This document shows positions 49,637 through 60,543 of a stretch of DNA of 64,000 nt, piece by piece. Under the pieces are notes generated by a model. That model had not been told where the DNA came from and did no database searches. It saw only the letters and a program-made list of their open reading frames with translations. The position numbers and the translations under genes are program-made. Each line of letters opens with the position of its first letter. Within the stretch, counting starts at the first letter, position 1. Source of the DNA: Halomicrobium zhouii (GTDB lineage: Archaea; Halobacteriota; Halobacteria; Halobacteriales; Haloarculaceae); NCBI RefSeq assembly GCF_900114435.1, contig NZ_FOZK01000001.1, positions 1,240,001 through 1,304,000 on the forward strand, in the 5' to 3' direction.

Positions 49637-49774
49637 GCCCGGGATAAATCGGCACGTCGGGATAAGTGTATTGAGAGCGGATTGCGCCGACCGAAGCGGC
49701 ACTTCGTGCCGCGGTTGCTCGAACGGCGAGCCTCGCGAGCCGTGAGAGCGCAGGGAGGCGCAATCTTTCGTGCG

Positions 49775-49915
49775 AGCGGGAGCGTTAGCGACACGCGAGC
49801 AGCGGGCGGGGCCGACCGGAGGGAGGGCCCGCCGAACGAGCGAGCGGGAGCGAACGGAGTGAGCGACACGCGAGCAGCGGGTCGGCCCGAACGAAGTGAG
49901 GGCCCGCCGGACCTC
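49775..49915. repeat. REP-like direct repeat in the thrS-uspA gap
   Basis: A unit of about 75 bases (cgagcagcgggcggggcc... from 49796 and cgagcagcgggtcggccc... from 49871) is repeated nearly twice between divergent thrS and uspA. It contains gggcc...ggcccgcc palindromes around a gaacgaagtga-type loop. The same loop and the gcgagcag joint occur in the 37803-38064 array. The rest of the 49637-49973 gap holds the two promoters. Confidence 0.6.
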
Positions 49916-50640: not shown

Positions 50641-51006
50641 ATGTCGACAGCCCGCGCGAACTGGCTCACGCTCGAAGGCTCCTCCTTCAGCGTCGACGGA
50701 TTCTCCCGCATGTGGCTCGTCGCCACTGCCACCTACGGCGTCGGTGACGTGGTGACGACGATCGCGATGGTGTATTTCACCACGACGCTTACCGAGGCAA
50801 ACCCGGTGATCAGACTGGCCATCGAGACCTTCGGCGGCGGCGGCTTCCTCGGCCTGAAACTCCTCGTCCTCTACGCCTGCATCGGTATCTCCCTCTGGGG
50901 CGGCGTCCTCGACGACGACCCCGTGCTGTTCTACGGCCCGCCGGCGGTGTTGACGGTGTTCGGCGTCGTCGTGACCGGGATGAATCTGGGCCTGCTGTTC
51001 GGCTGA
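50641..51006 (+). CDS. Small membrane protein of haloarchaeal type
   Basis: A 121-residue protein with three or four membrane helices (about residues 22-47, 52-75 and 93-118). The conserved-looking segment GVGDVVTTIAMVYFTTTLTEANPVIRLAIETFG resembles DUF5658-like haloarchaeal membrane proteins, but this is tentative. A TATA-like tatatgta about 30 bases before the ATG supports the start. It is followed downstream by the structured inverted-repeat element. Confidence 0.6.
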   Translation: MSTARANWLTLEGSSFSVDGFSRMWLVATATYGVGDVVTTIAMVYFTTTLTEANPVIRLAIETFGGGGFLGLKLLVLYACIGISLWGGVLDDDPVLFYGPPAVLTVFGVVVTGMNLGLLFG

Positions 51007-51130
51007 GAAACTGTCCTGGGACGCTGTTCTCCTACGCGTTGCCGGCTCTCTCGATCGGTTAGTACAGGTGAGCTACGTATCGATCCGTGGGTTATGGGAT
51101 TGACGCTCTTCGCACGAAATTAAAGAACTC

Positions 51131-51520
51131 GAAAGCCCTCGGCGCGCTCGCCTCGTGCGACTCGCTGCGCTCCTCACTTCGTTGCGGTGCTTACGTCGTC
51201 GGACGTCGGCGACCACACCTCGCCCTTTCAGTCCGCCAGGATCAGCCTCGCTCGCGCGATGTAACGCGCTCGAGATTATGGCCACCAAACCTCCCCGAAT
51301 TCGGCGCGTCCGCGCCGAATCACGCTTCCTGACCGCTCGGAAACTGCCAGGCCGGGAGGCCGTCTCGTCGGCCGACCAGGGGAAGGGCTGGGCTGTTGTG
51401 CTGTGCTGGCCCTGGTGGACTGAAAGGGCGAGGCGGGCTCCGGGAACCCGGGCGTAGCAAGCACCGCAGCGTAGCGAGGAGCGCAGCAAGCCCCGGGACC
51501 GGAGCGCGCCGAGGGCTTTC
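51131..51520. repeat. Long nested inverted-repeat element A
   Basis: The outer arms are perfect 19-base inverted repeats (51131-51149 and 51502-51520, starting GAAAGCCCTCGG). Inner arms (51218-51234 and 51417-51433, core CCCTTTCAGTCC) pair perfectly over 17 bases. The stretches between the arms also pair imperfectly (around gctgcgctcctc and gcggtgctt), giving arms of about 110 bases. The 170-base loop contains a perfect 10-base palindrome (51299-51308 and 51311-51320). An oligo-T (51538-51543) follows on the plus strand. The same architecture recurs as element B. It could be a structured RNA, a MITE-like element or a cruciform. The rest of the 51007-51663 gap shows no gene. Confidence 0.8.
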
Positions 51521-51537
51521 TGGGTGTTGGCGGTCTC

Positions 51538-51543
51538 TTTTTT
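51538..51543 (+). terminator. Oligo-T tract after element A
   Basis: Six T residues lie 17 bases after the right outer arm of element A. If the element is transcribed on the plus strand, this would be its natural terminator; it might also end the gene at 50641. Confidence 0.3.
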
Positions 51544-51663
51544 CCAGTCTCCACTCACTAAATCACCTGCACAATTCACACACCCACACAACAACGATTC
51601 CGTCCCAGCGGTATCGAAAAGAGCGAGCGAAGCAAGGTAGACGAAACCGAACTCCCGTCCCGC

Positions 51664-52509
51664 TCAGGTGGCCTGTCGGAGGACGAAGTCGACGTCGAAC
51701 TCGACGCCGTCGCTCTGGATCTCGTTCCCGGTCGACGTCGGGAGTCGCCACTCGAACGTGACGGTCGCTTGTTCGCCGGCCCCGAGCGCCTCGGTGCTCG
51801 ACCGGTCCGCTCCGTCGAGGGACTGCAAGGTCACGTACTTGCTTGACGAGCCGAACAGGTACTCCGTCGTTCCGTCGGCGTAGGTCACGGAGAGTCTCAC
51901 CTGGAGAGCGCCGGAGAGTTCTCCCGTGGTCGCGTCGTCGCCGACGGCTTTCTCCGGTTCCAGCAGCGAGTTCTCGTGGTCGACGACCGAGGTGTCGTTC
52001 ACGAGCAGGCGTCCCGCGACGGTCCCCGCGTTCTCGAAGGTGACGGAGTTCCGTCCGTCGTGGCCGGGCGCGAGACCAGTGGCCTCCACCAGGACGTCGC
52101 TCCCGTCCGCCGTCAGGTCGACGCGCGATGGGCTGTCGTCGTCGCTATCCCGGTCGTCGTCGCCGTCGTCAACGTCCGCGTCGTCGCGGTCGTCGCGCCG
52201 CGTCTCGGTCGGCGTCGCGGTGTCGACCGCCGTCGGCGTCGCGGTGGGCGTGGCCGTCGCCGCGGGCGGGCCGGCGCCCGGCGTCGGCGTCGGTGTGGCC
52301 GTCGTCGGCGTTATCGTGACGGGACCCGGCGTGGGCGTCGGTTCCTCGTCGGGTCCGGTCCCGGGGAGCGCGATGGTACCGATGCCGGCGCCGAGGATGA
52401 CGAGCAACACGAGCGCCAGGAGGGCAAGCAACCGCCTGTCGTCTCTCGACTCCTCGACCTCTTCGGGTTCGTCGGGCTCCTCGCGGAACGGTTGGGTAGG
52501 CCCAGTCAC
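51664..52509 (-). CDS. Membrane-anchored protein of the SipW/TasA-like operon
   Basis: A 281-residue protein. About 26 cytoplasmic residues, rich in Glu, precede a single membrane helix (LLALLALVLLVILGAGIGT), then a Thr/Pro-rich spacer (TPTPT...) and an Asp-rich stretch. The C-terminal beta domain (about 130-281) includes NSVTFENAGTVAGRLLVNDT and ends GNEIQSDGVEFDVDFVLRQAT. That ending resembles the end of the TasA-like protein encoded at 53080 (GNEFQSDGVSITFDF). It lacks a SipW-type signal and overlaps the signal peptidase gene by 4 bases. It may anchor or initiate fibres made from the two secreted proteins; that role is inferred. Confidence 0.7.
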   Translation of the reverse strand: MTGPTQPFREEPDEPEEVEESRDDRRLLALLALVLLVILGAGIGTIALPGTGPDEEPTPTPGPVTITPTTATPTPTPGAGPPAATATPTATPTAVDTATPTETRRDDRDDADVDDGDDDRDSDDDSPSRVDLTADGSDVLVEATGLAPGHDGRNSVTFENAGTVAGRLLVNDTSVVDHENSLLEPEKAVGDDATTGELSGALQVRLSVTYADGTTEYLFGSSSKYVTLQSLDGADRSSTEALGAGEQATVTFEWRLPTSTGNEIQSDGVEFDVDFVLRQAT

Positions 52510-60275: not shown

Positions 60276-60543
60276 AACAGCCCGAAAGCCCCCGCTGTCT
60301 CGGGTCGAGGGCTCCCGTGCGCTCCTCGGCCTTCGGCCTGCGGTGCTACGGGGAGCCGTCTTCCCCGACACAGCGGCCCCTTTCAGTCCCACCCGTTTCT
60401 CCTGGCTAATCGGCCGAACCGGGTGGGACTGAAAGGGGCGACGCTCTCACCGAACCCTGGCGACGTAAGCACCGCAGCGACCGCAGGGAGCGAGGAGCGC
60501 AACGAGTCACGGGAGGTGAGAGCGTCGGGGCTTTCGGGCTGTT
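60276..60543. repeat. Long nested inverted-repeat element B
   Basis: The outer arms are perfect 17-base inverted repeats (60276-60292 and 60527-60543, core GCCCGAAAGCCCC). The inner arms are perfect 20-base repeats (60376-60395 and 60420-60439, core CCCCTTTCAGTCCC) with a 24-base loop. A third pair, GACGCTCTCACC (60440-60451) and its complement (60515-60526), lets the right half fold on itself around gcaccgcagcg...gagcgaggagcgca. The architecture, the CCCTTTCAGTC core and this motif are shared with element A. The rest of the 60188-60584 gap shows no gene. Confidence 0.8.

What the first reader, a model, noticed from the sequence alone, without database searches (positions are those of the whole stretch)
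51131..51520. Element A: 390-base nested inverted repeat with a structured loop
Two perfect arm pairs (19 and 17 bases) bracket sequence that also pairs, and the loop contains its own perfect palindrome. This exceeds REP-type repeats in size and order. A T6 tract follows on the plus strand, which suggests a transcribed, highly folded RNA with a terminator. I know no named haloarchaeal element with this layout.
Basis: seen in the sequence. Interest (0 to 1): 0.7.

Follow-up and report, generated by a model that had tools for sequence, protein, structure and literature searches.

The report
Scattered haloarchaeal hairpin-pair repeat family
This is one of dozens of copies of a non-coding, two-hairpin DNA repeat scattered between genes of a salt-loving archaeon; in sister species the same core is carried by a small transposon, and the copies swap sequence so freely that copies at the same gene position in two species are hardly more alike than copies at different positions.

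Summary
The nested inverted repeat is real (19- and 17-bp perfect arms, 116-nt arms, fold z = -9.6), but it is not a singular RNA gene. It is one of at least 40 close copies in its own genome (189 copies of the 19-bp end motif, control 0); element B (60284-60535) is a diverged relative. Copies share one plan: arm1, 77-79-bp cassette, arm2, loop, then the same inverted. Each cassette is its own hairpin with strong covariation (96% Watson-Crick; 364 double changes; almost no G-T pairs). The long-range arms do not co-evolve. That points to DNA, not RNA. The T6 tract occurs in 2 of 76 copies. In three congeneric genomes the same core sits inside an IS6-type MITE: 17-bp TIR shared with full IS6 elements and 8-bp target duplications (24/36 perfect). 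The window lineage lacks that TIR and any duplication, so this copy is related to, but not filed as, an IS6 MITE. Sites and orientation are shared with a sister species (22/24), yet orthologous copies rank almost at random by sequence, which suggests exchange between copies. Each half also resembles an unannotated, usually single-copy non-coding element on haloarchaeal plasmids. New variant of a known kind.

The parts
51057..51582 (.). probable full extent of the repeat (left GGTTAGTACAG... to right ...AATTCACA)
   Evidence: flanks alignable among copies on both sides of the arms; no target-site duplication found
51131..51149 (+). outer arm, GAAAGCCCTCGGCGCGCTC (arm1 plus cassette start)
   Evidence: 189 matches at <=3 mismatches in own genome, control 0
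51142..51218 (+). left cassette, type A, 77 bp, self-complementary hairpin
51218..51234 (+). inner arm CCTCGCCCTTTCAGTCC (arm2)
   Evidence: arm2 present in the 73 of 76 copies that parse
51235..51416 (.). central loop, 182 nt, CCAGG...CCTGG near its ends
51299..51320 (.). perfect small palindrome in the loop
51417..51433 (-). inner arm, inverted copy of arm2
51433..51509 (-). right cassette, type A, 77 bp, hairpin with a stem sequence different from the left one
51502..51520 (-). outer arm, inverted copy
51538..51543 (+). T6 tract; a variant of TTTCTTCC in other copies, not a family feature
50641..51006 (+). upstream gene (121 aa ORF), convergent with the next
51664..52509 (-). downstream gene (281 aa ORF)
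60284..60535 (.). element B, diverged shorter relative of the same superfamily
   Evidence: nhmmer E 4e-12; further relatives in own genome

Best explanation
A non-autonomous, non-coding dispersed repeat of MITE/BIME type. It is two inverted copies of a ~110-bp hairpin module around a ~180-bp loop. SHOWN: high copy number; modular plan; intergenic placement; homologous cores in sister species moved as units with IS6-family ends and 8-bp duplications; conserved sites and orientations between two species with nearly scrambled sequence; Watson-Crick-only covariation inside each hairpin. INFERRED: copies spread long ago by an IS-type transposase acting in trans (for the window lineage the responsible transposase and exact ends are lost or unknown). 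Since then they have been kept palindromic and shuffled at the DNA level by ectopic gene conversion between copies and by replication template switching within each hairpin. No host function is needed to explain what is seen.
For: Copies: about 40 distinct places at E <= 1e-50 in the own genome; 189 end motifs against 0 for the reversed pattern. Plan: 73 of 76 copies parse into arm1-cassette-arm2-loop-arm2'-cassette'-arm1'. Mobility in relatives: 8-bp duplications just outside a 17-bp TIR, 24/36 perfect and 28/36 with >=7 of 8, shuffled pairs 0.09/36; the same TIR and 8-bp duplications on full-length IS6 (PF13610) elements; all 36 of those MITEs match a profile built only from window-lineage copies, 0 shuffled or reversed controls. 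Exchange: 24 orthologous-site pairs, orientation kept in 22; ortholog rank close to random, e.g. the window copy is 89% like paralogue L034 but 72% like its own ortholog L092. DNA-level maintenance; template switching is a documented route to paired double changes (PMC8794818).
Against: No TIR or target duplication could be shown for the window lineage (0 of 35 with 7 of 8 matching at the best-scoring offsets). The one clearly empty site found had eroded flanks, so it gave no ends. The loop keeps a weak trace of orthology (P = 0.015), so scrambling is not complete. A moderate excess between convergent genes (19 of 60 against 10 of 53 gene pairs in the window) could hint at a function. Gene conversion and template switching were inferred from patterns, not observed.
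Confidence: 0.75

Rival explanations
1. A structured non-coding RNA gene with its own terminator.
For: Strong folding, z -9.6; compensatory changes in the cassettes; the plasmid relative shows RNA-like G-T pairs (98 G-T against 9 A-C).
Against: No long-range arm covariation; 5 G-T and 15 A-C among 1604 pair cells in chromosomal cassettes; T6 in 2 of 76 copies; many copies in all gene contexts; no Rfam match.
Confidence: 0.07
2. A PATE or other IS200/IS605-derived element that moves by single-strand transposition at hairpin ends.
For: No target duplication and palindromes near the ends in the window lineage, as described for Haloquadratum PATEs (PMC3119063).
Against: Sister-species copies of the same core have TIRs and 8-bp duplications of IS6 type; the palindromes here form the body of the element and the loop lies between them; IS605-type ends were not searched for.
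Confidence: 0.1
3. A REP/BIME-like functional element (transcription end, mRNA stabiliser, or chromosome-structure site) kept at fixed sites by selection.
For: Sites and orientation shared between species; excess between convergent genes; constant cassette length and conserved apical sequence.
Against: All three gene arrangements are used, 19 convergent, 25 tandem, 15 divergent; an empty orthologous site exists; copy number varies strongly between related genomes.
Confidence: 0.15
4. Shared sites are recurrent independent insertions into hot spots, not exchange between old copies (a rival for the exchange step only).
For: Would explain unrelated sequence at the same site.
Against: Orientation agrees in 22 of 24 pairs; left-end sequence beside the site is shared in several ortholog pairs, e.g. 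L069/L082 and L050/L080, while the interior differs; weak loop orthology.
Confidence: 0.15

Closest known systems
IS6-family MITEs (archaeal IS6 clade; two MITEs of 227 and 336 bp mentioned by Varani et al. 2021, PMC7986276)
   Same: In three congeneric genomes the same core is 223-528 bp long with a 17-bp TIR like that of resident IS6 elements and 8-bp target duplications.
   Different: The window lineage lacks the TIR and the duplication; the body is two inverted hairpin cassettes rather than IS sequence.
BIMEs / REP clusters of bacteria
   Same: Mosaic of inverted palindromic modules, intergenic, high copy number.
   Different: Modules are about 110 bp, not 20-40 bp; cassette types are interchangeable; no RAYT partner was shown (not searched).
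PATEs and SMRs of Haloquadratum walsbyi (PMC3119063)
   Same: Transposase-free haloarchaeal repeats rich in palindromes; small palindromic inserts sit inside some copies here, as SMRs do in PATEs.
   Different: PATEs have no TIRs and derive from IS605; here the mobile relatives have IS6-type TIRs and duplications.
Unnamed, usually single-copy ~113-175-bp element on haloarchaeal plasmids (this study)
   Same: Same half-module: GGACT..GAAAGGGCGAGG, hairpin with the apical sequence GCAAGCACCGCA..GAGGAGCGCAGCG, GAGGGCTTTC.
   Different: Usually one copy per plasmid, mostly 80-95% conserved across families, often beside an OB-fold gene, with RNA-like G-T pairs.

Membership tests
IS6-family MITE | Terminal inverted repeat shared with a resident IS6 element | tested here: not met
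   Window lineage: GTGTTCAGATAAG absent from G000 and G005, left end GRTCAGTACAG instead. Met in G001, G002 and G004.
IS6-family MITE | 8-bp target-site duplication | tested here: not met
   0 of 35 window-lineage copies; 24 of 36 perfect in sister species.
IS6-family MITE | Core homologous to proven MITEs, no transposase gene | tested here: met
   36 of 36 sister MITEs match the window-lineage profile; no gene-like ORF in the window copy by codon score.
PATE (IS605-derived) | No TIR, no target duplication, near-terminal palindromes | tested here: inconclusive
   No duplication in the window lineage, but the palindromes form the whole body and relatives have TIRs.
PATE (IS605-derived) | Palindromes shared with an IS605-type transposon | not tested
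   No Y1/TnpB search was run.
REP/BIME | Unit is a 20-40-bp palindrome | tested here: not met
   Hairpin modules are about 110 bp with 77-79-bp cassettes.
REP/BIME | Mobilised by a RAYT (REP-associated tyrosine transposase) | not tested
   No RAYT search was run.
Rfam RNA families | Match above the gathering score | tested here: not met
   window element; plasmid relatives.
Structured ncRNA in general | Stem covariation with G-U wobble tolerance on one strand | tested here: not met
   Chromosomal cassettes 1570 WC, 5 G-T, 15 A-C; long arms do not covary.

The most novel reading that the evidence does not exclude
The hairpin module is descended from a conserved plasmid element that sits beside an OB-fold (replication factor A-like) gene on haloarchaeal plasmids. 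It may be an origin of replication or transfer, or a small RNA. The chromosomal repeats would be an amplified, recombining library of that module, scrambled between sites by gene conversion at a rate rarely seen in prokaryotes.
Probability: 0.25. Interest if true: 0.75.

Novelty: new variant of a known kind. Interest (0 to 1): 0.5.

Why it matters
It shows that textbook evidence for a structured RNA (strong folding, compensatory changes) can come from a mobile DNA palindrome, and gives a simple way to tell them apart: wobble counts, and within- against between-element complementarity. It also offers a natural system in which sites and orientations are conserved between species while the sequence in them is reshuffled, which makes the rate of ectopic gene conversion in archaea measurable. 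The link to an unannotated, conserved plasmid element beside an OB-fold gene is a testable lead on haloarchaeal plasmid biology.

Tried and rejected
(1) Known RNA family: no Rfam match. (2) Terminator: T6 is found in 2 of 76 copies. (3) Long-range co-evolving stem: rejected by the within/between test. (4) Target duplication in the window lineage: scanned over a range of offsets, none. (5) Clean empty site for the window lineage: the L067 site in G005 lacks the element, but the flanks are too eroded and another repeat sits there in G000. (6) Species-wise homogenisation: best matches fall about equally in both species. (7) GRTCAGTACAG as the end of an autonomous element: only 16 scattered places in G000, none forming an IS-sized pair. 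(8) Phage origin: no match in 50,697 phage records.

Full report
1. The observation. Outer 19-bp arms (51131-51149 / 51502-51520) and inner 17-bp arms (51218-51234 / 51417-51433) are perfect, and the loop has a perfect 10-2-10 palindrome at 51299-51320. Arms overall: 116 nt, 76% complementary, the only inverted repeat of 40 nt or more within 600 bp in the window. Folding is far beyond composition: -248.1 against -191.1 +/- 6.0 kcal/mol, z -9.6. It lies between two convergent genes, 50641-51006 (+) and 51664-52509 (-).

2. It is a family. In the window's own genome (G000, 4.25 Mb, 6 contigs) a search with the element finds about 40 distinct places at E <= 1e-50, 72-88% identical, on contigs C1, C2, C3, C5 and C6. 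The 19-bp end motif occurs 189 times at up to 3 mismatches, and 0 times when read backwards. The sister genome G005 has about as many copies. G005 is 'Halobacteria archaeon HArc-gm2' by its contig lengths. The other genomes of the genus have diverged relatives. One of these, G002, is probably Halomicrobium mukohataei: its main contig is 3,110,487 bp, and the equation with that species is from memory. The exact inner motif CTGAAAGGGCGAGGCG is in 23 of 116 genomes of the family, with up to 62 copies in genus g14 and no reversed-pattern hits. A longer exact motif is found in Halosimplex, Halorussus, Halonotius, Haloparvum, Halapricum and others. In Halosimplex the sampled copies have only one such half-module, so symmetry is not universal. 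Element B of this window (60284-60535) matches a profile of element A at E 4e-12 and has further relatives in the genome.

3. Plan. Of 76 copies from the two sister genomes, 73 parse into arm1 GAAAGCCCTCGG, cassette (mostly 77-79 bp), arm2 CTCGCCCTTTCAGTCC, a loop mostly of 165-250 nt, then arm2, cassette and arm1 inverted. Cassettes come in a common type A, a type B (GGATATCCTCGC...GGATAGGGCCCG) and unclassified variants, in mixed pairs. Some cassettes carry an extra ~60-bp palindromic insert. Outside the arms there can be one or more 51-bp units that repeat arm1. Left flanks tend to start with GRTCAGTACAG and right flanks end near TTCACA.

4. What the structure is. If the element were one long RNA stem, the left and right arms of one copy should match each other better than arms of different copies. 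They do not: 0.716 within, 0.728 between, 296 of 300 permutations at least as high. Inside each cassette, however, there is a hairpin with strong covariation: 115 cassettes, 15 pairs, 96.1% Watson-Crick against 69.8% (maximum 72.5%) when partners are shuffled. Leaving out one poorly aligned pair there are 1570 Watson-Crick cells, 5 G-T, 15 A-C and 14 others; over all 15 pairs there are 364 cells with changes on both sides. Stems change type as whole blocks (CTCGCC..GGCGA, CTCGAC..GTCGA, CTCCGG..CCGGA, CTGAAC..GTTCA). Shortage of wobble on both strands argues that the pairing is kept in DNA. Template switching during replication is a documented mechanism that makes such paired double changes (PMC8794818); that it acts here is inference. 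The cells count related sequences, not independent events. The T6 tract is a variant of TTTCTTCC and is found in 2 of 76 copies.

5. Mobility. In G001, G002 and G004 the same core (arms, both cassette types, CCAGG..CCTGG loop) is bounded by GNNNGTGTTCAGATAAG inverted repeats. Of 36 such elements, 24 have perfect 8-bp duplications immediately outside and 28 have at least 7 of 8; shuffled pairing gives 0.09. Full-length transposase-bearing IS6 elements (PF13610) in the genus carry the same ends, and several have perfect 8-bp duplications (L159, L170, L173, L178), in line with the family's described 8-bp repeats and its two listed MITEs (PMC7986276). All 36 MITEs match a profile trained only on window-lineage copies; shuffled and reversed controls give none. 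So the core is a demonstrated passenger of an IS6-type MITE in relatives. In the window lineage the TIR is absent and no duplication is found, so this copy is not filed as an IS6 MITE. G000 itself holds one IS6-type copy with a degenerate form of the same TIR (L161).

6. Age and exchange. At 24 sites a G000 copy and a G005 copy lie between the same genes, the flanking genes being mostly about 90-95% identical. Orientation is the same in 22. Of the roughly seventeen sites with both flanks found close together in one G005 contig, about fifteen are filled and one is empty (L067). Despite this, the copy most similar to a given G000 copy is almost never its ortholog: one reciprocal best pair (L042/L112), mean ortholog rank about 35 among roughly 75 other copies. 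By part, ranks among 35 G005 copies are 14.9 (left cassette, P 0.07), 19.5 (right cassette, P 0.75) and 13.3 (loop, P 0.015), where 18 is random. The window copy itself is 89% identical to paralogue L034 but 72% to its ortholog (alignment). Best matches fall about equally in either species, so the pool is shared but its assignment to sites is scrambled. Ectopic gene conversion between copies is the simplest reading; recurrent insertion into the same sites is possible but fits the conserved orientation less well.

7. A related plasmid element. Each half of element A matches, at about 75-80% over about 110 bp, a non-coding stretch on 53 haloarchaeal plasmids. A query of 221 bp from pNG600 finds it on 123 plasmids at mostly 80-95% identity, largely unannotated, and in 74 of 194 genomes of the class, 1-4 copies each, including the window's genome at C2:340732-340848. 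In 25 of 37 fetched loci an OB-fold protein gene (PF01336/PF21473-like, below the curated cut-offs) is also present, typically about 0.4-0.6 kb from the element. Its pairs show 98 G-T against 9 A-C, although some of the G-T cells are nearly invariant positions. So the plasmid relative looks RNA-like while the chromosomal repeats do not. Whether the repeats descend from it is open.

8. Verdict. A real, ordered feature, best explained as a copy of an old, non-autonomous, mosaic palindromic repeat of MITE/BIME type. It is a new variant of a known kind; the RNA-gene reading is unlikely. Function in the host remains unproved and is not required.

Noticed in passing
L328:2440-2660 (pNG600 95140-95360); window genome G000:C2:340732-340848: Conserved, largely unannotated, usually single-copy non-coding element (~113-175 bp) on 123 haloarchaeal plasmids and in 74 of 194 genomes of the class, often beside an OB-fold gene, with RNA-like G-T pairing.
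   Followed up: partly
window 60284-60535: Element B is a shorter, diverged relative of element A (GAAAGCCCC...GGGGCTTTC with CCTTTCAGTCCCACCCG inner arms and a short loop) with further relatives in the own genome.
   Followed up: partly
L067:1556-2176; also the long cassettes of L038, L044, L053: Small (~60 bp) palindromic inserts such as GTTCGAAAGGCGCGAAGCGCCTTTCGTGATGACGAGAGAGCTTCGCTCTCTCGAACCAC sit inside cassettes, like the SMRs described inside Haloquadratum PATEs.
   Followed up: no
L059:1884-2022 and flanks of many copies: 51-bp tandem units that each contain the outer arm but no hairpin cassette.
   Followed up: partly
L067:about 1386-1556 (G000:C2 near 26.5 kb): A different inverted repeat (TAGTGGTGGTTGTA...TACAACCACCACTA) lies next to this copy and is absent from the G005 site.
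   Followed up: no
window 49772-49909: A 75-bp direct repeat (1.9 copies) upstream of the threonyl-tRNA synthetase-like gene on the minus strand.
   Followed up: no
L188-L207 (Halosimplex-like genus g14): Half-elements: one hairpin module with a left part (GCGCGCGCTGTCGCGCG...GGGATGAGC...GGCTGGGGAGG) in place of the second module.
   Followed up: no
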